This document shows positions 41,311 to 63,397 of a stretch of 63,437 bases of DNA, in pieces. The notes under the pieces are model-generated. The model did no database searches and was not told the DNA's origin. It was given only the letters and a program-made list of their open reading frames with translations. The DNA lies in contig JAFSMP010000002.1 of the NCBI GenBank assembly GCA_017447875.1, forward strand, positions 1-63,437, read 5' to 3'. The translations under genes were made by a program, and so were the position numbers. How positions within the stretch are numbered: position 1 is the stretch's first letter; each line of letters begins with the position of its first letter. Source of the DNA: Paludibacteraceae bacterium. Lineage in GTDB: Bacteria; Bacteroidota; Bacteroidia; Bacteroidales; Paludibacteraceae.

Positions 41311-41798
41311 TTCTCAATAGCGTTTTTAAGTTCTGTTGTAATAAGATCTTCCAGTTGCTTTGTCAGTTCCTGCGATGCGCCAAGAAAGCGTCTCTGCGGC
41401 ATGTGTACGCGGCGTTTGTGTGCCCGGACGGAATATAGGCGACCTTTGCGGGATCTGCGCGTATGCTGGCGCACGTTCACCTCACCATCCAAGCCCTCAT
41501 TGTGTATTTCGGCATAAGGCACATCCGTCCCGATGACCACGCGGTTAGAATCAGCGCTGATTACACGGATGGAGCGTTTCAAGCGGCCACTATCCACGAG
41601 GATTGCACCGTTTTGGCGTTTCTCGCCACCACGGCGCTTCCCTGAACGAGGCTTCCATGGTTCTGGCGTGGTGTCATGCCAATTCTGCTGAACGAAACGC
41701 TGCTTGCTGAAATTGACTGCGCAGGTAGCCACACGAGCAGGAAGCGCGTTGATGGCGCGCGTCACATCATCTACTATGGCGGCAAAGGATTTGGGCAT
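41307..41798 (-). CDS. Phage virion morphogenesis protein (Mu gpG-like)
   Basis: 163 residues. VNFSKQRFVQQNWHDTTPEPW, LVDSGRLKRSIRV, VVIGTDVPYAEIHNEG and the RRFLGAS end are the signature of the phage virion morphogenesis family (Mu gpG, P2 gpS), needed for tail completion and head-tail joining. Overlaps the tape-measure stop by one base. Confidence 0.85.
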   Translation of the reverse strand: MPKSFAAIVDDVTRAINALPARVATCAVNFSKQRFVQQNWHDTTPEPWKPRSGKRRGGEKRQNGAILVDSGRLKRSIRVISADSNRVVIGTDVPYAEIHNEGLDGEVNVRQHTRRSRKGRLYSVRAHKRRVHMPQRRFLGASQELTKQLEDLITTELKNAIEK

Positions 41799-43708
41799 TA
41801 GTATGACATTTCCAAGTTACGTATAGCTCTTAAAAGCATCTGGTTGAACCAATCTTCTATCTGCGAGGAATCCATCCCGCGTAAGCCTTCGGTATTAGTG
41901 GTATTGATACCACCCTTATTGAAGGCATCAATGTTAACCGTTATATTGCGGATCTGTTTAGCAGAGCCGGCAACGCTTTCGGCGGTACCGATGCCGGATG
42001 ATCCTTCTGAGCCGGTAATGGGCGCACCTGATTCGCCGGATGGTGCTCCACCGGCACCATAGATAGCTTGTTCCTCTTGTGCGGTAGCCGGTTCGGTGTC
42101 TTGCTTCTTATGAAGATCCACTTGCTTCCATGCCTCGGCAATCTCTTTGGCGCGTGCCATGGATTCATCTTTGAAGGTTTGCCGGTTGGTATCACGTTGC
42201 TGTTCCAGAGCCGTTACATTTGCGTTGGCAGTGAATGTGAAACCATTGGCCAATGCTGCCTTGGCTCCGTCGAAGTCTCCTTTGAGGACGGCTTTCATCG
42301 CCTGTGCGAGTGCTTTGAACACATTACCTACGTTGGATCCAAAGGACTTGATGCGTTCCCAGAAGATTTGCAGATCCATCCAAAGTTCCTTGATGCCAAA
42401 CTTCCAATTCTCCACGTACTGCTTGAATGAAAGTACCAGTGTAGTCTTGACTGCGTTCCAGACGGAAGTCCATCCCTCATAACGGCGGCACAAGGCAATA
42501 ATGGCACCAATGAGTGCACCGATGGCCACAATGATGATGCCGATGGGGTTAGCTGACATAGCTACATTCAATAACCATTGTGCAGCGGTCAGTACGGCAT
42601 TCTTGACGGCAAGCGCAGCGGTTACGGCTGTGGTAGCAATCAACTTGGCATTCAAGAGGGCAAAAGCACCAATGACGCCATAAATGACTTCACGCCATTC
42701 GTATATGAAGGCGAAGGCATTCTTGATCCATCCGAGGGCTGTGAACACCCCTCTGATGGCTGCACCTATGACGTTGGCAACGGCAGTAACGGTCGCTGTG
42801 ATACGCTCTTTGTTCCGTTCAAAGACAGACACCACACGTTCCCACCCGGACATGATAGCATTGCGGACGGGTAGCCATGCCGCTGCAATGGCGGTAAAGA
42901 GTCCTCCGAAGCGCTCTTGTAGGTCACCCAAGTTATTCTCATATTGTTTGAGTGCACCTTCAGGCGTTTGCGCCAGTGCAGCATTGACGCCGCCCACAGA
43001 GGTAGAGACTACATCCGCGAGGGTGGCGGCACGCTGTTCCTCCGTTCCGAATTTGAGGATTTTTTCCTGTGCCTCATCGAACTTATAGCCGTATCTGGAG
43101 AGTGCTCCGACCTGACCATCCATGACTTTACCCATCATGGTAGCGATGGATGTAGCTTGTTCCTGTGTGGCATTCAAGCCATATTGCTGCGCAACCATGT
43201 CATTCATTACCGGCATGAGCTTTTTGAGGTTATCAGCTTTGGTCAGGTAGGTACCCAGTTCCTGCGCACCGGCAAGCTGTACTTCGTCACCGATGACACC
43301 AAGGCGCTGCTGTTCGGAAGCAAGTGCTTTGATGCTGTTTATTTCGGATGTACGTGCGCCCATGGTATTGCGCATGACGGCAGCCAGTTTGGTTTCTGCT
43401 TCGGCTTGTGCATTGTATAGTTCCCTGGACTGCGCCGCGAACTCATTGAGTTTGCCGATGCCCGCTCGAAGTGCACCGAAAGCACCAACGACCAAGGAAA
43501 TAGGATTTTTGAGCAACCTGATGGCTTTGTCGAAAATTGGAATCTCTTTCCGCATCTCGGCAAAGGCATTGACGAAGGTGCCCTTTAAGTGATTTAGTTT
43601 GTCCTGCATGTCCTTAGTGGACTGACTGACCGCATCTTTCGCCTTGGTTAGGTTGGTTCGGATGCGCTCCTTCATTTCGAGGATCAATTCAATTTTCGAC
43701 TGTGCCAT
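41798..43708 (-). CDS. Tail tape-measure protein
   Basis: 636 residues. N-terminal long helix (ILEMKERIRTNLTKAKDAVSQ), Ala-rich helical segments, the conserved TMP region (LGTYLTKADNLKKLMPVMNDM, MMGKVMDGQVGALSRYGYKF), and hydrophobic stretches near residues 330-410 (GVIGAFALLNAKLIATTAV, GIIIVAIGALIGAIIALC) that may enter the host membrane. It sets tail length and helps DNA entry. Unusually, it is on the opposite strand and ~12 kb from its chaperone gene (55744). Confidence 0.85.
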   Translation of the reverse strand: MAQSKIELILEMKERIRTNLTKAKDAVSQSTKDMQDKLNHLKGTFVNAFAEMRKEIPIFDKAIRLLKNPISLVVGAFGALRAGIGKLNEFAAQSRELYNAQAEAETKLAAVMRNTMGARTSEINSIKALASEQQRLGVIGDEVQLAGAQELGTYLTKADNLKKLMPVMNDMVAQQYGLNATQEQATSIATMMGKVMDGQVGALSRYGYKFDEAQEKILKFGTEEQRAATLADVVSTSVGGVNAALAQTPEGALKQYENNLGDLQERFGGLFTAIAAAWLPVRNAIMSGWERVVSVFERNKERITATVTAVANVIGAAIRGVFTALGWIKNAFAFIYEWREVIYGVIGAFALLNAKLIATTAVTAALAVKNAVLTAAQWLLNVAMSANPIGIIIVAIGALIGAIIALCRRYEGWTSVWNAVKTTLVLSFKQYVENWKFGIKELWMDLQIFWERIKSFGSNVGNVFKALAQAMKAVLKGDFDGAKAALANGFTFTANANVTALEQQRDTNRQTFKDESMARAKEIAEAWKQVDLHKKQDTEPATAQEEQAIYGAGGAPSGESGAPITGSEGSSGIGTAESVAGSAKQIRNITVNIDAFNKGGINTTNTEGLRGMDSSQIEDWFNQMLLRAIRNLEMSY

Positions 43709-54036: not shown

Positions 54037-55314
54037 ATGGGAAGTCTTAAAGGAGTAAACATTCAACGTGGTACGATAGGTGCCAGCGTCGATCAAGGAG
54101 CGGATGCTATCACCGGCCTCTTGGCTACAGGTGTGGCGGTAGCTGCTGACGCGGCGAACGGCATCAGCGGTATTGCTCTTGGTCAGACCGTCAGACTAAC
54201 CAGCCTGACGGATGCCGAGGCTTACGGCATAAACGAATCGTATGATAGCACCAACTCGCTGAGCGTTTATCGCCATATCAGTGAGTTCTACCGCATGTTC
54301 CCCAATGGCACGCTTTACCTCATGCTGTATTCGGGTGACATGGAGGCTGCTTTTGCAGAACAATATGCAAAGAAGCTGATTATTGATGCCAATGGAGAGA
54401 TCCGCATCCTCGGTATTGCCAACACACCGGCAGCCGCTACCGAAGAATACCTCAACGGATTCCCGGAGGATGTGTTTGGTTCTATCCAACTGGGGCAACA
54501 GCTCTATGACTGGGCATTCAGTACGTTCCGCCCGTGTCAGATCATTCTGGAGGGCCGTGACTTCAATGCTGCCAATGCAGCTTCCGCGCTGGATCTGCGC
54601 AACATCACCATCAGCAACCAAGTATTGGAAGCGTTCAAGGTGTCGGTGTGCATCGCACAGGATTGGAAGTTCGCGGATGGTCTGGATGCTATCCGTAAGA
54701 AGATGGCCGACCTTGGCACCATGCTTGGCAGCATAGCCAAGAAAGCCGTCAATGAGAATATCGGCGAAGTGGAAGGTGGCAATTTGGTTGACACCACGAA
54801 TAACAAGTGGCTCGTTGCCGGACTGAGCAACCACCAGACCGTAGCCGGATGGGATTCGCAATTAGAGGCACTTGACAGCAAGGGCTATATCTTTGCCATC
54901 TCGTACACAGGCATTGCCGGTTACTACTGGAACAATGACCACACCTGTACGCCTATCAAGAAGGACAAAGACGGGTACTTCAACGAGTACACCATCAGCT
55001 ACGGCCGTGTGCATGACAAAGCCGTGCGTGATCTGCGCACCTGTCTATTGCCCAAGGTAAAGAGCACCCAACCGGTTGACCCGGACACCGGCAAACTGCC
55101 GCAGGCCTTAGTGACCTACTTCGAGCGTCTTGCCGATGATGACGTGTTCAACGCGATGGCTGCTGAAGGTTTAATCACCGCCGGTAAGACCACCGTGGAT
55201 CCGGATAGCGACTTGCTCATCTCGCCGCGTGAACTGAAAGTGTCGTTCGTACTGGTGCCGACCGGTCAGATAGACGAAATCAAAGGAACTATTAACCTCA
55301 AAACAAGCATCTGA
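54037..55314 (+). CDS. Tail sheath protein (DUF2586-like)
   Basis: 425 residues. LKGVNIQRGTIGASVDQGAD, YRHISEFYRMFPNGTLYLML, FRPCQIILEGRDF, YIFAISYTGIAGYYWNNDHTC, ISYGRVHDKAVRDLRTCLLPKV and the end ISPRELKVSFVLVPTGQIDEI match the contractile-tail sheath of Bacteroidota Mu-like phages. It shows the tail is contractile. Followed after 2 bases by the tube gene. Confidence 0.85.
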   Translation: MGSLKGVNIQRGTIGASVDQGADAITGLLATGVAVAADAANGISGIALGQTVRLTSLTDAEAYGINESYDSTNSLSVYRHISEFYRMFPNGTLYLMLYSGDMEAAFAEQYAKKLIIDANGEIRILGIANTPAAATEEYLNGFPEDVFGSIQLGQQLYDWAFSTFRPCQIILEGRDFNAANAASALDLRNITISNQVLEAFKVSVCIAQDWKFADGLDAIRKKMADLGTMLGSIAKKAVNENIGEVEGGNLVDTTNNKWLVAGLSNHQTVAGWDSQLEALDSKGYIFAISYTGIAGYYWNNDHTCTPIKKDKDGYFNEYTISYGRVHDKAVRDLRTCLLPKVKSTQPVDPDTGKLPQALVTYFERLADDDVFNAMAAEGLITAGKTTVDPDSDLLISPRELKVSFVLVPTGQIDEIKGTINLKTSI

Positions 55315-55316
55315 TT

Positions 55317-55739
55317 ATGGCTGAAATTTCAAGAGGAGGTAAGACCTTCGACAATGGCGACGTGCAAATCGCCATGCTCGGCAGCATCGACTATGAAGTT
55401 ACCAAGATCTCTTACGAGACCGAGCAAGACCATACTGCCAACTATGCCCTTGGATCCAATGAGCCAAGCAGCTATAGCATGGGTAAGAAGAAACACAAGT
55501 GTACGCTTGGACTTCGCCTGCGCAGTATATCTGAGATAGAGAAAGCTGCCGGTGGCAACCTGCTTGCCATCAAACCGTTCAACATCGTCGTCACTTTTGT
55601 CGATGAGGAGAATGAGATCATTGTGGACGTCATCAAGTGCAAGTTCCAGTCACAAGGACGGGAGGTTGGCGACAATGACGACATCAAACGCGAGTTTGAA
55701 ATGTTTGTAACCAAAATTGACTACAACGTAGTACGTTAA
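55317..55739 (+). CDS. Tail tube protein
   Basis: 140 residues. Beta-rich (NGDVQIAMLGSIDYEVTKISY, HKCTLGLRLRSISEIEKAAG, PFNIVVTFVDEENEIIVDVI, REFEMFVTKIDYNVV), right after the sheath gene, as the inner tube always is in contractile phages. The family is inferred from position and fold pattern. Confidence 0.7.
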   Translation: MAEISRGGKTFDNGDVQIAMLGSIDYEVTKISYETEQDHTANYALGSNEPSSYSMGKKKHKCTLGLRLRSISEIEKAAGGNLLAIKPFNIVVTFVDEENEIIVDVIKCKFQSQGREVGDNDDIKREFEMFVTKIDYNVVR

Positions 55740-55743
55740 CAGT

Positions 55744-56100
55744 ATGGAAAACGAAGTTAAAGATCAAGGCTGCAAGTTGCCGGAAGGTGTAACTACAGCG
55801 GATGTCCAAGCGTGGAAAGAGCGCTATGGCGAGAATAAGATTAAGATTGCTTCATTGCCCAAGGACGATGACGGCAACGAGTTCATGGACGTAATCGTGC
55901 GCGTGCCGGACCGCAAGTGTCTGGGCGAGTTCGAGAAGTGGGTGGATAAGTCGCCGGACAAAGCCAAGGAGATTCTGGTGAACGCCTGTGTGCTGAGTAA
56001 TAAGGAAACCGTCAAGGCTGACGATGGACTGTTCTTTGCTGCATTTGATGCCATCACCAAGCTCATCCCGGTTCGTACTGCAATCGTAAAAAACTGCTAA
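55744..56100 (+). CDS. Tail assembly chaperone, short form
   Basis: 118 residues (MENEVKDQGCKLPEGV...). Helical and acidic; contains RVPDRKCLGEFEKWVDKSPDKA and ends VRTAIVKNC. Located between tube and baseplate genes, where the overlapping tail chaperones (gpG/gpGT in lambda) are found. It ends at TAA 56098-56100, six bases after the heptamer A AAA AAC. Confidence 0.75.
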   Translation: MENEVKDQGCKLPEGVTTADVQAWKERYGENKIKIASLPKDDDGNEFMDVIVRVPDRKCLGEFEKWVDKSPDKAKEILVNACVLSNKETVKADDGLFFAAFDAITKLIPVRTAIVKNC

Positions 56101-56306
56101 CGGGGTTCCCTCAGATAGACGCTATTGAGGACGATGACCCCGAAGCGAACCTGTTCAATGAAATACGAAAACTAAATGCCCAGATGTCCCTTTTCTTCCA
56201 CATCCCATTCCCGGAGGATCTTCCGGATGAGTTGTGGGCAGAAAAGGTGGCACAGCTGAAATGGCTGGCTGAAAAAGGTTTGTTAGGAATAAAATCGGTT
56301 TTATGA
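55744..56306 (+). CDS. Tail assembly chaperone, -1 frameshift form
   Basis: At 56088-56094 the zero-frame codons GTA AAA AAC form the classical slippery heptamer A AAA AAC. A -1 slip continues with CTG CTA ACG (LLTGFPQIDAIEDDD...) through 70 codons to TGA at 56304-56306, which overlaps the next gene's ATG (ATGA). The total would be 187 residues. The added part (NEIRKLNAQMSLFFHIPF, LPDELWAEKVAQLKWLAEKG) is plainly protein-like, has no start codon of its own near the front, and otherwise would leave a 200-bp gap in a tightly packed operon. This matches gpG-gpGT of lambda; the long form should contact the tape measure. Confidence 0.85.
56088..56094 (+). promoter_or_regulatory. Programmed -1 ribosomal frameshift site A AAA AAC
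   Basis: Slippery heptamer in the correct zero frame (GTA AAA AAC), followed at once by TGC TAA. Only a weak hairpin (GGG-gtt-CCC, 56103-56111) is seen downstream; the phase is exact. Confidence 0.85.
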
Positions 56307-56956
56307 TAGACATTGACATCACAGATAGAATGTTTGCCGCCTTTGGTTACGTTCCAAGCGGTTATCCTAAGCAAGAAGTTATGCGTTCAGGCATAGCAGC
56401 TGCTTATGCGTCAGATGCTGCGATTAGCATAGGTCTTGGACGGGCAAACATAGCACTCATCAAAAACAGGATAGGTGCCAATGTGTTTGTCAATGGCTGT
56501 TCATTTGCCGACCTGACACTGTGTAATTCAGAGAACGGGAAGTGCTATGAGTTTGCCAATGGTCTGCTTAGCGAAGCGGCCACTGGCATTCTCGCACCTC
56601 CGCCGATGCTCACATTTGAGCGTTCTAAGAATATTGTTAAAACTACGGTAGATGGTAGCGACAGTGAAGTCGTCGAAAGTTTTGGATGTAAATCTTGGAC
56701 AATAACAATGCACGGTATATTGGTTGATACAGATAATCACCAGTACCCACAAAGCAAATTACAAGAATTACGGGAGATGTTCGAAGTCAACAATGCCTTT
56801 GAAGTGCTTGACTGTGACATCATGGCAGATCTTGGCATAGAAAATCTCTATATAGAACAGATTTCAGAATTAGAATGTCTTGTAGATTATCAGGACACTG
56901 TGAAGTATAAGTTGACTGCGCATAGTCTCAAACCAGTAGAATTCTTTTTAATGTAA
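56303..56956 (+). CDS. Baseplate/tail protein (DUF6046-like)
   Basis: 217 residues. WTITMHGILVDTDNHQYPQSKL, LREMFEVNNAFEVLDCDIM, LYIEQISELECLVDYQDTVKYK fit a small family of Bacteroidota phage baseplate proteins likely equal in role to gp53/LysM-linked tail proteins (peptidoglycan-side tail hub). Coupled to the frameshift form by ATGA. The C-terminal 9 bases overlap the convergent gene 56948. Exact role inferred from order. Confidence 0.55.
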   Translation: MIDIDITDRMFAAFGYVPSGYPKQEVMRSGIAAAYASDAAISIGLGRANIALIKNRIGANVFVNGCSFADLTLCNSENGKCYEFANGLLSEAATGILAPPPMLTFERSKNIVKTTVDGSDSEVVESFGCKSWTITMHGILVDTDNHQYPQSKLQELREMFEVNNAFEVLDCDIMADLGIENLYIEQISELECLVDYQDTVKYKLTAHSLKPVEFFLM

Positions 56957-57307
56957 CCCGCAAGGGCCTTCTTTAATGAACTTTACTGTAATGTCGGCGG
57001 TTCCACTCGTTACTATCTTGACATTGAGATCCGCAGAACCATTCTCTATGATGCGCCATTCGCCACATGAAGTAGCAGAACCTTGATCCAGCTTTTTGAC
57101 GATGATATCACAAGGACCGTATTCAACTACTTTTACTACAATGTCAGCCAAACCATAAGTGTCAACGAACTTCACTTCCCCATACAACGGATAAGTCTTA
57201 CCATCCTTGGTAATGGTGCAGTTGCTCCGGTCGATCTTGACATCATCAGCAAACGTGAACGTTGCTGTAGCGAGAGCTAAAAGTAATATGGTGACTATGC
57301 GTTTCAT
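56948..57307 (-). CDS. Secreted small repeat protein, candidate lysogenic-conversion gene
   Basis: 119 residues. Signal peptide MKRIVTILLLALATATFTFA, mature start DDVKIDRSNCTITKDGKTYPLYG, then four short strands of one pattern: GLADIVVKVVEYGPCDIIVKK, GSADLNVKIV, GTADITVKFIKEG. Similar secreted proteins with xxDIxVKxV repeats occur widely in Bacteroidales. It alone runs leftward inside the rightward tail operon, overlapping its neighbour by 9 bases, so it is an inserted moron gene probably expressed from the prophage. Its promoter is not clear (a weak TAATTGTTG-like box at ~57322-57330). Confidence 0.7.
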   Translation of the reverse strand: MKRIVTILLLALATATFTFADDVKIDRSNCTITKDGKTYPLYGEVKFVDTYGLADIVVKVVEYGPCDIIVKKLDQGSATSCGEWRIIENGSADLNVKIVTSGTADITVKFIKEGPCGLH

Positions 57308-57372
57308 TTACTAAATACACAACAATTATTGTGCCAAAGGGCACGATTTCAACCAACAAAAGACTAAAAAAG

Positions 57373-58398
57373 ATGTTTGTCGTTCCGAAATCCGAAATAA
57401 CCATTGGTTCCGTGCGCTTCTATGGAGAGCAAGCCGGTGTGAATGCCGTGACCATTAAGGAATCGGTGGATAGCCTTGGAAACAGTGCCACGGTCACTAT
57501 ACCGCGCAACTTCCAACGCAAGGACGGCAAAGGCATTTTGGACTACATACACACTGGCGACAAAGTAACTATCCGGCTTGGTTATGGCGATAACCTCTAC
57601 ACGGAGTTTGAAGGCTACTTGGCGCATATAGGTGACGGAACACCCATTGTCCTGGAGATAGAAGATGAGTGGTACTTATTTCGTAAGACACGTTTCAATA
57701 AGAACTTCCAATCGACATCACTCAAAGAAGTGCTTCAATTCGTGTTCCCTGGTTATACCATTGATGACAATGTGAACTCACCTATTCCTGAAGGTTATAC
57801 CATCCGCGATGCCAGTGCATACGATGTGGTGAAAGCCTTACGTGAGCAACGCGGCTTCTTTACTCGCGTGGATGTAGAGCAAAAGACGGTGAGCTGTTTC
57901 TACCCATTCAACTACAAGGGCGTTGAAACGCACACATACGTATTCGGCACGCGCAATTGTACGTTGCTGGATGAACTGAGAAAGAAAGAACTGGCGCCGA
58001 ACATCATTTCTAACACGTTGAAATTCGTGCGCAAAGAAGATATAAAACTGCATATCACTGCCAAAGGCCAAGACCGCACAGGCAAGACTATAGTAGAGGA
58101 ACTTGGAGACAACAGCGATGATGCAACCAAACGCACCATGAATTTCGGTACCGAGTGCCAGACAAAGCAGGCTTTACGGGAACGAGCTCAGGCTGCTTTG
58201 GATAAACAATGTTTTGACGGGTATGAGGGAAAAATAACCGGCTTTGGCGTGCCACGTGTGCATGCCGGCGATGCGGTTAAACTCGTGGATCCGGAAAACA
58301 GCGAGCGTGAAGGCACTTACCTCGTTAAAGCAGTTACCATCAATTATGGCGTTGGCACTGGCTTCCGCCGTGAAGTAGAACTATCATACAAAATATAA
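57373..58398 (+). CDS. Baseplate hub protein (gpD/late control-like)
   Basis: 341 residues from the ATG at 57373 (MFVVPKSEITIGSVRF); a GTG at 57331 would add 14. TIPRNFQRKDGKGILDYIHTGD, VTIRLGYGDNLYTEFEGYLA, SLKEVLQFVFPGYTID and the end GAGDAVKLVD-like (HAGDAVKLVDPENSEREGTY) match the gp27/gpD hub family (Mu gp44, P2 gpD). It sits between tube and spike in the baseplate. Confidence 0.75.
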   Translation: MFVVPKSEITIGSVRFYGEQAGVNAVTIKESVDSLGNSATVTIPRNFQRKDGKGILDYIHTGDKVTIRLGYGDNLYTEFEGYLAHIGDGTPIVLEIEDEWYLFRKTRFNKNFQSTSLKEVLQFVFPGYTIDDNVNSPIPEGYTIRDASAYDVVKALREQRGFFTRVDVEQKTVSCFYPFNYKGVETHTYVFGTRNCTLLDELRKKELAPNIISNTLKFVRKEDIKLHITAKGQDRTGKTIVEELGDNSDDATKRTMNFGTECQTKQALRERAQAALDKQCFDGYEGKITGFGVPRVHAGDAVKLVDPENSEREGTYLVKAVTINYGVGTGFRREVELSYKI

Positions 58399-58402
58399 CA
58401 CC

Positions 58403-59260
58403 ATGGCAAGATCCATAGAACAAATCAAAACCTCAATGGCTGAGGCTTTCATGCAAGACACCAATCTTGCAATCAAGTATGGCTTTGAAGTAGGCGCAGA
58501 CTTCAACAATACATTCTCAAAAGTGTCTATTGAGAGTTTGCTGCTGTATATAGTGGCAGTTGGTATTTGGACGCTGGAGAAACTTTTTGACACCCACACG
58601 GCAGAAGTCACCGACTATATTGCCACTATGAAGCCGCATTCGCTTCGGTGGTATGTAGAGAAAGCCAAGGCGTTCCTATACGGCGTGCCGCTCGTCGATG
58701 GTTCCGACCAACACGACACCACCGGCATGACCGATGAACAGATTGCCCAGGCGCAGATTGTCACCTTTGCAGCCTGCACCGAATCCAATGCTACGCTGTA
58801 CCTTAAAGTGGCGAAAGCCGGACCGGCGCCACTCACAGCCGATGAGAAAGCTGCCTTTGTCGCTTACCTCCATGAGATCAAGGATGCCGGTGTCCGTATA
58901 GATGTCATTTCCGAGCAAGGCGACTACCTCAAACTGGATATGGTCATCTACTATGATCCGTTGCTCATCAATGCCGATGGCGAGAGTAAAGCCAAACGGG
59001 CACCAGCCATCGAGCAAGCCATCAAGGACTATATCGAAAACATCCCCTTCAATGGCGAGTTCCGCAAGAATGAACTGGAGGATGCCATCCGAGCCGTCGA
59101 TGGTGTGGTCATGGTCGAGTTCGTGGCTGCCTACCATTCCGAAACGGGTGCCGAAGATACCTATGATGAAGTGGTACCCTACTGCAAACCCGCTTCCGGT
59201 TATTTCAAGTTTGACAATGCCGATCTTTCGGACGTAACCTATCAGCCCTATGCAAATTGA
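58403..59260 (+). CDS. Baseplate wedge protein (gpJ/Mu gp47-like)
   Basis: 285 residues. FSKVSIESLLLYIVAVGIWTLE at the start, TFAACTESNATLYLKVAK, DVISEQGDYLKLDMVIYYDP, ENIPFNGEFRKNELEDAIRA and VDGVVMVEFVAAYHS are the baseplate J-like pattern seen in Bacteroidota phages. Its stop overlaps the next start by 11 bases. It forms the baseplate ring with the gp25-like protein. Confidence 0.75.
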   Translation: MARSIEQIKTSMAEAFMQDTNLAIKYGFEVGADFNNTFSKVSIESLLLYIVAVGIWTLEKLFDTHTAEVTDYIATMKPHSLRWYVEKAKAFLYGVPLVDGSDQHDTTGMTDEQIAQAQIVTFAACTESNATLYLKVAKAGPAPLTADEKAAFVAYLHEIKDAGVRIDVISEQGDYLKLDMVIYYDPLLINADGESKAKRAPAIEQAIKDYIENIPFNGEFRKNELEDAIRAVDGVVMVEFVAAYHSETGAEDTYDEVVPYCKPASGYFKFDNADLSDVTYQPYAN

Positions 59261-59744
59261 TTACCGTAAACTGGTCATACTCTTATTGCCGACGTTCCTG
59301 CGCCAACCGGTTCTGATGGCATGGCTTCGCGCAATGGCTTATCCGTTGCAGCAACTCCATGACCGTCACCAAGCGGCACGCACGCAACGCCTGTATGAGC
59401 TGCGACACACCAGCCAGATATGTTTTATCAAAGACGCCCTCAATAACGAGTTCGGCATCACAGACTATGCCAATGGCTTTGAGATAGAGGACATCAACGC
59501 GCCCGGTGAATGGGTGTGGATCTATGATGAGAATGTGGACCGCTTCGATGATGAACAGCACATGCTCTTTGATGATCCGACATTCATACATAACATTTCC
59601 GCCATTTTGCCGCCTACCTCTGCATTCTTTGTCTTGGTTCCGCAATCCATAACCATTGACGAGACGAACGAGGCACGCATCCGTTCCATTGTGAACAAGT
59701 ACCGACTGGCATCACGAACCTTTGAAATAAAAACAAGAATATGA
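59250..59744 (+). CDS. Baseplate/tail protein I-like (Mu gp48 position)
   Basis: 164 residues (MQIDYRKLVILLLPTFLRQP...). LRAMAYPLQQLHDRHQAARTQ and LRHTSQICFIKDALNNEFGIT are typical of proteins joining baseplate and fibre in Bacteroidota phages. Placed between the gpJ-like and fibre genes as gpI is in P2. Role inferred from order. Confidence 0.6.
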   Translation: MQIDYRKLVILLLPTFLRQPVLMAWLRAMAYPLQQLHDRHQAARTQRLYELRHTSQICFIKDALNNEFGITDYANGFEIEDINAPGEWVWIYDENVDRFDDEQHMLFDDPTFIHNISAILPPTSAFFVLVPQSITIDETNEARIRSIVNKYRLASRTFEIKTRI

Positions 59745-60727: not shown

Positions 60728-63397
60728 ATGGATTTAGCAACAATTTTAACATGGTTCAAAAGAGGCTACAAGCCTACCGAAGCGCAGTTTGCTGCCACGT
60801 TCCGTTCGTTCCGCCATAAGGATGATGCCATTCCGATGGAGGATGTCTCAGGTTTGACGATGGCACTCGCTAATAAGTCGGAAAACGGACACACGCACAC
60901 CCTTGCGGAGATAACCGACTATGACGGTGGCGACAAAGAAGTCATCAATGCCATGGTGGCGCAGGACAGTACCGAACTGGAGGCGTTCACCAAGACTGCC
61001 GGCATGTATTATATTCTGCTGAGCGATGATCTGCTCTACCAATGCGTGCATGATGAGGACACGGACACCGACACCCTCACCGAAGTAGAGCCGGATGGAA
61101 AGGTAGTTTATTCTGCTTATGATGCAGACGACAACCTGCATATCTACCTCTACAACGTGCCCAATCTCATGTTCCAGGACGTGACCAACGAGCAAGTGGA
61201 TAAAACCATCTACACAAATGATCTGAATGGTCTTATCACCCGTCAACTTGCAAATGGTGTTTATTCTGTGGTGTACATCAATAGTGGCATTGATGATAAC
61301 ACGTATGGCGATGCCTACACACTCACGGTGGGTGATGGATCTATTGCCAGCCGAGTTCTGGAGTGCCGCACCGGATGGGCACAGACTATTCTGGTAGATG
61401 AGACGTATCAGTGGCAGTGGCACAACTATTCGTACAACGGCCATGGCCACCAGCAATCTGACGTTGAAGGTCTGACGGAAGCCCTCGCAGGGAAGGCTGC
61501 CTCCAATCATGATCATGATGGAGTGTACCAGCCGGCTGGAAGTTATGCAGCCGCAGATCACAACCATGATTCCGCGTATGCTGCCAAGAACCACACGCAT
61601 AGTGAGTACCTGACGCAACACCAGGACATCAGTGGTAAACAGGATAAAACTGACAATTCTTTGCTGACTACAGCTAAGAACATTGTCAGTGCCATCAATG
61701 AGCTGTGGAATAAGTTTGCGGACTACGCGCTGGCCAATCATAATCACGATGGTGTGTACCAGCCTGCCGGGAACTATGCCGATGCCAATCACAACCATGA
61801 TAGCCGGTATCTGACGCAGCACCAGGACATCAGTGGCAAACAGGATAAAATGGACAATACTCTGCCGACTACAAACAAAACTATTGTGGGAGCTATTACT
61901 GAATTATGGAATAAGTTCACGGACTACCTCAAAGGTATTCAGCAAGTGACTTATGCGCAACTGGTGACGCTCCGGAACAATAGTGGACTGAAACCCGGTC
62001 AGTGGTATCGCATCACCGACTATATGACGACAGTTGTCAACGATACCGAGGCACGTAGCGCAGGGCATCCATTTGATTTGCTGGTCATGGCTACAAGCAG
62101 CAACACACTTTCTGAGGAAGCCAAAGCAATCAAGAGTTCCAGAGACAGCAACGACTATTTTGCCGATGCCAACCTGAACGCATGGAAGGTGTGGTATTGT
62201 CTGGATAATGACACAACACGCTTCCAATGGGCTGACACAGAGAACGGAAAAGGTGTCATCTGGCGCATGATCGACGAGTGGCAGAATGATTGCCCCTATG
62301 ACTTCAAAAACGTGCAGTTCAAACGCTATCGCGTGTATGATGATAGTCCTCATGGAGAATTAGAAGCATTGGATGGTCAATACTATGGTTATAATGGCGA
62401 TATGAATAATGTCCATATAGACGATGAAGATGACTTCGTATGGGCATATACATTCACGCTCATTGATGAAAATGATGACTATGTGGATTATTCTATCAAG
62501 AAAGAAGGTGCTTTAGATACCGAAACAGATTGGGGGTATCTCAACCAATTCAAGAAAGGACGTTGTGAATATAACCGCATTAGACATAGTTATACGGCCG
62601 TTACTATTGATGACCAATGCTATCGCACATTGATGCTGAACAATATCGTACTGATTTCGACTATCAATGAGGAATGCGGTTTGTCCGGGGAAATGCAACT
62701 GAACGAATTCGGTGTAGGCAACTATAACATGACAGTCAAAGATAATCCGGAGAAGAATGTCTTTGGCAATAAATGTTACAATAACATCGTTGGGTCGTAT
62801 GCTAACACATTCGGGAACGATTGTAGTGGTAACACGTTCGGGAACGATTGTAGTGGTAACACGTTCGGGAACGGTTGTTCTTGGAATACATTCGGGAACG
62901 ACTGTTATGAGAACACATTCGGGAACGACTGTTATGAGAACACATTCGGGAACTACTTCCGGTGTAATACGTTCGGGAACTACTGTTACAGCAACACGTT
63001 CGGGAACGACTGTTATGAGAACACATTCGGGAACGGTTGTGGTGGTAACACGTTCGGGAACGACTGTTATGAGAACACATTCGGGAACAATTGTAGTGGT
63101 AACACGTTCGGGAACGGTTGTTACCGTAACACATTCGGGAACGGTTTTCAATATAACACGTTCGGGAACAAATGCCGCTATCTCACTGTGCATAACGGTG
63201 TTCGATACGTGGAAGTTCCAGGTGGTAGCACAGATTATTCCTATGTTCAGAACGCCCAAATACTCAACGGAACGCATGGCAGTGACTCGTCAAATATGCT
63301 ACAAATATCGTTCCAAGAGGATGCAGACTACTGCCAATTTGCAGGTCTGAATAGTAGCGGCATTTTGAAGATTTGGGTGCCTGCTGACGCTGCATAA
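60728..63397 (+). CDS. Long tail fibre with His-rich motifs and fourteen 9-residue repeats
   Basis: 889 residues. N-terminal attachment part (MDLATILTWFKRGYKPTEAQ), a middle with paired NHxHD motifs (NHDHDGVYQPAG, DHNHDSAYAAKNHTHSEYL, NHNHDSRYL) like the metal-binding collars of trimeric fibres, then a domain with YRITDYMTTVVNDTEARSAG. Residues ~693-818 are fourteen copies of NTFGNxCxx, a right-handed beta-helix type repeat. The tip is VHNGVRYVEVPGGSTDYSY to WVPADAA. It should decide host range. The repeat DNA is a 27-bp tandem array. Confidence 0.85.
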   Translation: MDLATILTWFKRGYKPTEAQFAATFRSFRHKDDAIPMEDVSGLTMALANKSENGHTHTLAEITDYDGGDKEVINAMVAQDSTELEAFTKTAGMYYILLSDDLLYQCVHDEDTDTDTLTEVEPDGKVVYSAYDADDNLHIYLYNVPNLMFQDVTNEQVDKTIYTNDLNGLITRQLANGVYSVVYINSGIDDNTYGDAYTLTVGDGSIASRVLECRTGWAQTILVDETYQWQWHNYSYNGHGHQQSDVEGLTEALAGKAASNHDHDGVYQPAGSYAAADHNHDSAYAAKNHTHSEYLTQHQDISGKQDKTDNSLLTTAKNIVSAINELWNKFADYALANHNHDGVYQPAGNYADANHNHDSRYLTQHQDISGKQDKMDNTLPTTNKTIVGAITELWNKFTDYLKGIQQVTYAQLVTLRNNSGLKPGQWYRITDYMTTVVNDTEARSAGHPFDLLVMATSSNTLSEEAKAIKSSRDSNDYFADANLNAWKVWYCLDNDTTRFQWADTENGKGVIWRMIDEWQNDCPYDFKNVQFKRYRVYDDSPHGELEALDGQYYGYNGDMNNVHIDDEDDFVWAYTFTLIDENDDYVDYSIKKEGALDTETDWGYLNQFKKGRCEYNRIRHSYTAVTIDDQCYRTLMLNNIVLISTINEECGLSGEMQLNEFGVGNYNMTVKDNPEKNVFGNKCYNNIVGSYANTFGNDCSGNTFGNDCSGNTFGNGCSWNTFGNDCYENTFGNDCYENTFGNYFRCNTFGNYCYSNTFGNDCYENTFGNGCGGNTFGNDCYENTFGNNCSGNTFGNGCYRNTFGNGFQYNTFGNKCRYLTVHNGVRYVEVPGGSTDYSYVQNAQILNGTHGSDSSNMLQISFQEDADYCQFAGLNSSGILKIWVPADAA
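62804..63181 (+). repeat. 27-bp tandem array (14 units) in the tail-fibre gene
   Basis: Units begin aacac(a/g)ttcgggaac and are exactly 27 bp, 14 in a row. The first six codon positions are almost fixed while positions 6-9 of the peptide unit (D/G/Y/N/K, C/F, then two free residues) vary. The array is in frame, so unit loss or gain changes only fibre length. Confidence 0.9.

What the first reader, a model, noticed from the sequence alone, without database searches (positions are those of the whole stretch)
56081..56306. Programmed -1 frameshift in a Mu-like tail assembly chaperone
Seen: codons GTA AAA AAC give the heptamer A AAA AAC in correct phase six bases before the stop. The -1 frame is open for 70 codons, reads like protein, fills an otherwise empty 200-bp gap and ends in an ATGA overlap with the next gene. 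Known: lambda gpG/gpGT and many tailed phages use this design. The 187-residue long form would go unannotated by standard gene callers.
Basis: partly seen in the sequence, partly recalled or inferred. Interest (0 to 1): 0.82.

Follow-up and report, generated by a model that had tools for sequence, protein, structure and literature searches.

The report
Ribosome frameshift makes phage tail chaperone
In a virus integrated in the genome of a Bacteroidota bacterium, one short gene appears to give two proteins because some ribosomes slip back by one letter just before the stop, a known trick for building phage tails that here comes with its own conserved folded RNA signal.

Summary
A_AAA_AAC (56088-56094) sits in phase one codon before the stop of a 118-codon gene after the sheath and tube genes; the -1 frame continues 70 codons to an ATGA overlap with the next gene. 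In 123 distinct homologous loci the -1 frame carries a homologous C-terminal (T-like) domain in 116. Of 117 sites with a -1 extension, 80 have a canonical in-phase heptamer in the overlap (5 of 130 comparable control gene pairs), and 1 has an ATG in the -1 frame near the stop (111 of 130 controls). The tape measure gene lies in an opposite-strand operon here (41798-43708), but a homologue lies within 2 kb downstream of the chaperone in 16 related loci, which supports tail assembly chaperone identity. Shift motifs vary in the family: A_AAA_AAC, A_AAA_AAG, G_GAA_AAG, N_GTA_AAN, G_GGA_AAG. No frameshift product has been measured. It is a new member of a known kind (lambda gpG/gpGT), with an unusual RNA signal.

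The parts
55744..56100 (+). zero-frame ORF, short form (118 aa) of the putative tail assembly chaperone (gpG-like); phrog_19076, unknown function
   Evidence: 48 of 48 scanned members of alignment A5, this one included, match phrog_19076; lies directly after sheath and tube genes
56088..56094 (+). slippery heptamer A_AAA_AAC, correct phase for -1 slippage
   Evidence: sequence; same heptamer in 50 of 117 homologous sites; the covariance model built from heptamer plus stem has its only strong hit in the window and in the own genome here (the window row was in the training set)
56095..56100 (+). 6-nt spacer containing the zero-frame stop TAA (56098-56100)
56101..56142 (+). putative stimulatory RNA stem-loop: outer stem 56101-56107 (CGGGGTT) with 56136-56142 (GACCCCG), inner hairpin 56109-56130
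   Evidence: MFE -21 kcal/mol for 56095-56160, z -3.15, 0 of 200 shuffles as low; z -2.75 against protein-preserving resamples; relatives covary, the window's own stem being in another register
56094..56306 (+). -1 frame extension, 70 codons, T-like domain (C-terminal part of the 187-aa long form)
   Evidence: homologous T domain in the -1 frame in 116 of 123 loci (the profile was built from 48 of these); predicted two-helix fold, mean pLDDT 86.5
54037..55314 (+). tail sheath (phrog_907, DUF2586)
55317..55739 (+). tail tube protein (phrog_4579 tail protein; also phrog_9206, labelled major head protein; tube role inferred from position)
56303..56956 (+). baseplate hub-type protein, DUF6046 (phrog_5233)
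41798..43708 (-). tail tape measure protein, in the opposite-strand head operon, 12 kb away from the chaperone gene
   Evidence: several tape measure PHROGs; homologues lie within 2 kb downstream of the chaperone, same strand, in 16 related loci

Best explanation
The gene is the tail assembly chaperone of a Mu-like contractile-tailed prophage. Most ribosomes stop at 56098 and make the 118-residue short form. A minority pause at the stem-loop 56101-56142 with AAA and AAC in the P and A sites, slip back one nucleotide on A_AAA_AAC and continue in the -1 frame, making a 187-residue long form with a helical T-like domain. As in lambda, the short form and the shared part of the long form would coat the tape measure protein, and the T-like domain would bring in tube subunits; the shift rate would set the ratio. 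Shown by computation: anatomy, conservation of frame, motif and RNA structure, absence of an alternative start. Inferred: that the slip happens, its rate, and the chaperone function.
For: Anatomy and gene order. T domain in the -1 frame in 116 of 123 distinct loci. Canonical in-phase heptamer in the overlap at 80 of 117 sites (66 of them with one exactly 10 nt before the stop) against 5 of 130 control gene pairs with a comparable -1 extension; a further 33 have GGAAAAG or NGTAAAN at the same position against 0 of 130. ATG in the -1 frame within 30 nt of the stop: 1 of 117 against 111 of 130. Stem-loop: 47 AAAAAAC sites mean z -2.57 against synonymous resamples, control window 90 nt further -0.63; in the 27 relatives chosen by gap-free protein alignment (26 distinct) the helix is paired in 85.1% of cells, 22-51% when slid, 18 double-change cells against 5.9 in shuffles. 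Tape measure homologue downstream of the chaperone in 16 loci. A profile of the short form meets PDB 3fgx weakly (E 0.014).
Against: No protein or reporter data. A_AAA_AAC is a weak site in E. coli compared with A_AAA_AAG (review PMC5009743, passages), so it must work better in Bacteroidota or lean on the stem. The tape measure gene is not adjacent here. The window's own stem is not in the register of most relatives. 11 of 47 AAAAAAC sites have a fold z above -1.5, three of them near zero (L066 +0.27, L140 -0.11, L016 -0.12). Sliding the helix by +3 also gives 15 double-change cells, though only 34.6% of cells pair. Five distant relatives have a separate next gene, one an in-frame fusion. No library names the family as a chaperone; 3fgx itself is DUF6848.
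Confidence: 0.94

Rival explanations
1. Two separate overlapping genes: the second frame is translated by re-initiation after the stop (or from an internal start), with no frameshift.
For: In Flavobacterium phage fF4 the second frame is deposited as its own CDS from an internal start (QHJ72924). Five distant loci have a next gene with its own ATG. Control gene pairs in the same loci usually work this way (111 of 130 with ATG).
Against: 1 of 117 homologous sites has an ATG in the -1 frame within 30 nt of the stop and 11 of 117 any ATG/GTG/TTG; the first ATG in the window is 86 nt past the stop, in the middle of the conserved domain; it would not explain the in-phase heptamer or the stem-loop.
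Confidence: 0.03
2. Transcriptional slippage on the A run gives a mixed mRNA population, rather than ribosomal slippage.
For: A homopolymer A6 is present; ten other sites have A runs of seven to nine near the stop (L027, L030, L097, L122, L123, L131, L144, L150, L159, L161).
Against: In the AAAAAAC group the run is exactly six A, preceded by T in 49 of 50 and C in 1 of 50 sites; run length would be expected to drift. Sister sites without a long run (N_GTA_AAN, G_GAA_AAG) keep the same -1 extension. A downstream stem at 6 nt fits a ribosome rather than a polymerase.
Confidence: 0.03
3. Decayed gene: the -1 frame is the tail of a formerly longer protein broken by an indel or sequencing error.
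For: One relative, L132, has the domain in the same frame.
Against: 116 of 123 distinct loci from a phage isolate, MAGs, other genomes and viral contigs have the same frame relation, and stop and motif are conserved at the same place.
Confidence: 0.005

Closest known systems
Phage lambda gpG / gpGT tail assembly chaperone with -1 frameshift
   Same: Short gene in the tail operon, -1 slip near its 3' end, C-terminal T extension made only by the shift (lambda facts from the review PMC5009743, passages seen).
   Different: Recalled: lambda uses G_GGA_AAG, has a non-contractile tail, and its tape measure gene is next door. Here A_AAA_AAC, a conserved downstream stem-loop, a contractile tail, and a displaced tape measure gene. 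No direct sequence comparison with lambda was made; no library family named for a chaperone was matched.
Phage P2 gpE / gpE+E' and Mu gp41/gp42-type chaperones of contractile tails (recalled)
   Same: Same position after sheath and tube in a contractile-tail operon (recalled for P2 and Mu).
   Different: Recalled, not tested here: P2 uses a T_TTT_TTG-type site and Mu a -2 type shift. PMC5009743 (passage) says only that the frameshift is 2- to 3-fold more efficient in P2 and related phages.
Haloarchaeal virus HCTV-2 g-t frameshift
   Same: Same heptamer, A_AAA_AAC, in a g-t type tail gene (PMC5009743, passage).
   Different: Archaeal siphovirus; nothing was seen here about an RNA stem.
E. coli dnaX frameshift signal (A_AAA_AAG; upstream Shine-Dalgarno element recalled; its stem-loop is named in the abstract of PMC7282821, listing)
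   Same: A-rich heptamer followed by a stem-loop.
   Different: No Shine-Dalgarno-like element upstream in the AAAAAAC group (mean duplex energy -2.6 kcal/mol, upstream control -2.8), in keeping with the occluded anti-SD of Bacteroidia ribosomes (PMC8710568, passages).
Flavobacterium phage fF4 (Winoviridae), QHJ72923 and QHJ72924
   Same: Homologous short form and -1 T domain; tape measure gene also on the opposite strand.
   Different: Shift motif GGGAAAG 19 nt before the stop; deposited as two separate hypothetical proteins.

Membership tests
frameshifting tail assembly chaperones (lambda G/GT type) | short ORF after the tube gene in a tail operon | tested here: met
   sheath found upstream in 111 and tube in 66 of 123 loci
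frameshifting tail assembly chaperones (lambda G/GT type) | directly upstream of the tape measure gene | tested here: not met
   in the window the tape measure gene is 12 kb away on the other strand, likewise on the other strand in fF4; a homologue lies within 2 kb downstream in 16 related loci. A usual, not an invariable, feature (recalled), so it lowers but does not exclude membership
[quoted passage not shown]
frameshifting tail assembly chaperones (lambda G/GT type) | open -1 frame with a conserved C-terminal domain and no start of its own | tested here: met
frameshifting tail assembly chaperones (lambda G/GT type) | both products made in a fixed ratio, absent from the virion | not testable with these tools
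   needs protein data
frameshifting tail assembly chaperones (lambda G/GT type) | recognisable sequence or fold similarity to known chaperones | tested here: inconclusive
   no family named as chaperone in Pfam, PHROGs or NCBIfam; weak PDB match 3fgx, itself DUF6848; the fold prediction of the short form never started
canonical -1 programmed frameshift signals | XXXYYYZ heptamer, spacer of about 5-9 nt, stable downstream structure (range recalled) | tested here: met
   56088-56094, 6-nt spacer, stem 56101-56142

The most novel reading that the evidence does not exclude
Bacteroidota contractile-tail phages run their chaperone frameshift on a signal of their own: without need of Shine-Dalgarno pairing (their hosts' anti-SD is occluded), driven by downstream RNA structure that is a local stem in one clade and a helix spanning about 85-90 nt in the other, and in many members with slippage of the A-site tRNA alone (N_GTA_AAG, and even N_GTA_AAC/T, which break the XXXYYYZ rule). 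Slip motifs have turned over many times while the -1 extension stayed.
Probability: 0.4. Interest if true: 0.65.

Novelty: new member of a known kind. Interest (0 to 1): 0.46.

Why it matters
It proposes a function (two-product tail assembly chaperone) for phrog_19076, a family of unknown function, and for an unnamed C-terminal domain that annotation can miss or mis-start (as in fF4). It supplies a natural set of over a hundred candidate -1 frameshift sites for Bacteroidota, whose ribosomes differ from those of E. coli (occluded anti-Shine-Dalgarno), so that the questions of which codons slip and which RNA structures stimulate there become directly testable with reporters. It also shows a tail module in which chaperone and tape measure genes lie on opposite strands.

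Tried and rejected
Re-initiation, transcriptional slippage and gene decay were tested and rejected as above. A Shine-Dalgarno-like stimulator upstream: anti-SD pairing is stronger in the second clade (mean duplex energies -7.0, -7.1 and -4.8 kcal/mol for its three motif groups, upstream controls -1.0, -2.6 and -2.1; AAAAAAC group -2.6, control -2.8), but it hardly exceeds synonymous resampling (mean z -0.17 to -0.47), so it is not claimed. Host lysine tRNA as the determinant of the slip motif: not supported, since one genome (G111) carries both an AAAAAAC and a GGAAAAG element; only the window's own tRNAs were read (30 of 39 loci; Lys UUU and CUU, Asn GUU). RNAalifold on the second clade's alignment A4 predicts no structure at all; the long-range helix there rests on pair counts along a helix that I drew by eye (82.8% of cells paired, 25-45% when slid; 22 cells with both sides changed against 6.3 in shuffles, but sliding by -1 gives 23 and by +2 gives 21, so that measure alone is not decisive) and on fold scores over 105 nt. 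A count of spacer lengths from free folds was unclear, because weak outer pairs often start at the heptamer (10 of 47 at 0 nt), and is not used. Fold of the short form: never obtained. Literature: no paper describing a tail-chaperone frameshift in Bacteroidota phages appeared among the rows listed (in some, 20 rows of hundreds of matches); the hankyphage paper PMC12135933 has no occurrence of 'frameshift' or 'chaperone' in its main text, PMC10367356 one of 'frameshift', about spanins, PMC8776804 none of 'chaperone'. The library is open-access only, so this is no proof of absence.

Rows dropped before counts: 4 of 162 sequences (161 loci plus the window piece) at contig ends (L068, L121, L156, L160) and 35 duplicates, leaving 123 distinct; six without a 40-110-codon -1 extension (L124, L125, L126, L127, L130, L132) leave 117. 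Genome matches for which no locus was returned (beyond the cap) were not read. The tree used 108 of 123: those six, L078 and loci scoring under 65 bits were left out, and its rows include the residues of the slip site. From the 27 rows selected by gap-free protein alignment, I first left L064 and L067 out of A2 and A3; with both put back (A7) the result is as strong (85.1% paired, 18 double-change cells). A2 adds the window and L013. The helix was drawn from these rows, which favours it over slid versions. Fold z-scores used at most 25 sites per group, and one site (L099) was read at a wrong offset there and; one search repeats the second-clade figures with right offsets and all sites, and these are the ones quoted.

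Full report
Observation. The sequence is as described. The zero-frame ORF 55744-56100 ends ATC GTA AAA AAC TGC TAA, with A_AAA_AAC at 56088-56094 in the phase needed for a -1 slip. The -1 frame is open from 56049 to 56306 stop-to-stop; from the slip it gives 70 residues, LLTGFPQIDAIEDDDPEANLFNEIRKLNAQMSLFFHIPFPEDLPDELWAEKVAQLKWLAEKGLLGIKSVL, and its TGA overlaps the ATG of the next gene. The heptamer ends one codon before the stop. The long form would be 117 + 70 = 187 residues.

Context. The upstream genes are tail sheath (phrog_907, DUF2586) and a tube-type protein, the downstream ones a DUF6046 protein and a baseplate hub (phrog_4930). The element is a Mu-like prophage: Mu-type portal (PF06074), Mu F protein, transposase (phrog_310), an AAA ATPase in the MuB position, terminase, ClpP-type protease and major head protein. 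The window is a complete contig (C36) of a 2.25-Mb draft genome, 77% complete. A genome of the same genus, G111, has a 206,964-bp contig whose length and site match those of JAMPAY010000002.1, labelled Paludibacter sp.. The tape measure gene is not next to the chaperone: it lies at 41798-43708 on the minus strand with the head genes. Flavobacterium phage fF4 also has it on the opposite strand.

Relatives. Protein and profile searches of viral contigs, genome contigs, the phage collection and samples of 300, 395 and 393 whole genomes (own genome in each, some overlap) gave 161 loci, which with the window make 162 sequences; 4 were cut by contig ends and 123 distinct sites remain. In 117 the -1 frame continues for 40-110 codons. 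A profile of the -1 product, built from 48 of these loci, finds the T-like domain in the -1 frame in 116 of 123, in the zero frame in 1 (L132, an in-frame fusion) and nowhere in 6 (L124, L125, L126, L127, L130 and L131). The first five of these six score 42.7 to 46.6 bits and come from one genus-level group (g42); their next gene has its own ATG. The domain is conserved across both clades (motif around HIPFPExLxDExW) and is predicted as two helices with mean pLDDT 86.5.

Frameshift or re-initiation. An open -1 frame alone proves little: 130 of 321 control ORFs in the same loci have 43 or more open -1 codons. But 111 of those 130 have an ATG in that frame within 30 nt of the stop, and 1 of the 117 chaperone sites does. 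A canonical in-phase heptamer lies in the overlap at 80 of 117 sites, 66 of them with one exactly 10 nt before the stop, and at 5 of 130 controls; 16 more have G_GAA_AAG and 17 N_GTA_AAN at the place of the heptamer, 0 of 130 controls do; 4 have none of these. L128 among these four reads G_GGG_GAA, a pattern that the PRFect paper reports for SEA-PHAGES frameshift genes (PMC10885494, passages). Counted at the position 10 nt before the stop, the motifs are AAAAAAC 49, GGAAAAG 17, AAAAAAG 11, N_GTA_AAG 11, N_GTA_AAC 6, AAAAAAA 4, AAAAAAT 2, N_GTA_AAT 2 and 15 others, among them L043 with AAAAAAC 7 nt before the stop. In fF4 and two relatives (L115, L116) a GGGAAAG lies 19 nt before the stop.

RNA signal. 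For the 47 AAAAAAC sites of the first clade, the 60 nt after the shift fold better than resamples that keep the -1 protein and draw codons from the group: mean z -2.57, 36 of 47 below -1.5; a control window 90 nt further gives -0.63 and 11 of 47. The window: z -2.75 there, and -3.15 against dinucleotide shuffles over 56095-56160. In the 27 relatives whose -1 protein aligns without gaps over the region (26 distinct), an 8-bp helix has 85.1% of cells paired against 22-51% for slid partners, 18 cells with both sides changed against 5.9 in shuffles, and 6 of 8 pairs with such changes; a slide by +3 also gives 15 double-change cells, at 34.6% paired. Two earlier counts on other row sets gave 88.5% (25 rows) and, with the window and L013 added, 84.1%; these two pair in other registers. 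RNAalifold on the 25-row set finds 6 pairs unaided, 5 of them the same as mine. In L056, L058, L061 and L062 a long hairpin sits at the start of an insertion of 22 or 27 residues found only there among the 47. Not all sites comply: 11 of 47 lie above z -1.5, with L066, L140 and L016 near zero.

Second clade. Over 60 nt the sites with G_GAA_AAG and N_GTA_AAN fold little or no better than resamples (mean z -1.09 and -0.18), but clearly so over 105 nt (-4.13, 17 of 17 below -1.5; and -2.54, 14 of 19); A_AAA_AAG sites give -1.85 and -2.53 (7 of 11 below -1.5), the 21 mixed others -0.74 and -1.48 (11 of 21, which corrects). A helix joins the start of the -1 region with a stretch further on, spanning about 85-90 nt: 82.8% of cells paired in 37 sequences against 25-45% slid. 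I drew it from the alignment by eye, and RNAalifold returns no structure, so it is a good lead rather than a result. The motifs N_GTA_AAG/C/T keep pairing mainly for the A-site tRNA (my reading of the codons); A_AAG alone is known to be shifty in E. coli (PMC5009743, passages).

Family tree and gene order. On a tree of 108 sequences one branch with 100/99 support divides 54 rows (48 AAAAAAC, the three GGGAAAG, L118 with AAAAAAT, and L023 and L073 without a standard motif near the stop) from 54 others (N_GTA_AAN, GGAAAAG, AAAAAAG and some more, including one AAAAAAC, L157); the motif classes need 18 changes in all (shuffled mean 54.2), so motifs turn over while the extension persists (few columns, many unresolved forks). 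A homologue of the window's tape measure protein lies on the same strand within 2 kb downstream of the chaperone in 16 loci, 15 of the second clade and L131; E-values run from 9e-96 to 0.002, the three weakest being L081, L092 and L093. This links the family to the classical chaperone neighbourhood. No locus of the AAAAAAC group gave such a match, but only 29 of 123 loci have 2 kb or more held downstream, so absence is not very informative.

Mechanism and comparison. The design is that of lambda gpG/gpGT, in which the short form and the shared part of the long form bind the tape measure protein and the T domain recruits tube subunits (PMC5009743, passages). A_AAA_AAC is a weak site in E. coli but is used by haloarchaeal virus HCTV-2 (same passages). 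Bacteroidia ribosomes have an occluded anti-Shine-Dalgarno, yet the prfB frameshift is common there (523 of 726 genomes; PMC8710568, passages); a downstream stem is a plausible stimulator that does not need that pairing. The AAAAAAC group shows no Shine-Dalgarno-like element. The run is exactly A6 in 50 of 50 such sites, which speaks against polymerase slippage. Whether the slip occurs and at what rate has not been measured.

Verdict.

Noticed in passing
window 41798-43708 (-) and 54037-59744 (+): Tape measure gene lies in the opposite-strand head operon while the rest of the tail operon is on the plus strand; phage fF4 (MN850656.1) also has it on the opposite strand, whereas 15 loci of the second clade have a homologue within 2 kb downstream of the chaperone.
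   Followed up: partly
window 56948-57307 (-): A 119-codon gene with a signal-peptide-like start (phrog_6462, unknown function) is inserted against the direction of the tail operon, between the DUF6046 gene and the hub gene; it looks like a cargo (moron) gene.
   Followed up: no
window 60728-63397 (+): Tail-fibre-like protein with a phage tail repeat match (PF12789) and a long run of NTFGN-type short repeats.
   Followed up: no
L131 (G000:C43:50139-50426): The same host genome holds a second, distant chaperone-like gene on another contig, with an A run (8 A) about 25 nt before its stop and a tape measure homologue beginning 134 nt downstream.
   Followed up: partly
L078 (IMGVR_UViG_2788500054_000001), about 2001-2875: Two chaperone-like domains in tandem in one ORF, followed by a single AAAAAAC shift site and one T domain.
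   Followed up: partly
L132 (G505): A relative with the T-like domain in the same frame, i.e. apparently without need of a frameshift.
   Followed up: partly
L056, L058, L061, L062: Insertions of 22 or 27 residues at the frameshift junction begin with a long RNA hairpin (11 to 13 bp), as if the insert served its RNA.
   Followed up: no
L002 / MN850656.1 23388-23923: Deposited annotation of phage fF4 splits the chaperone into two hypothetical proteins (QHJ72923, QHJ72924), the second from an internal start.
   Followed up: yes
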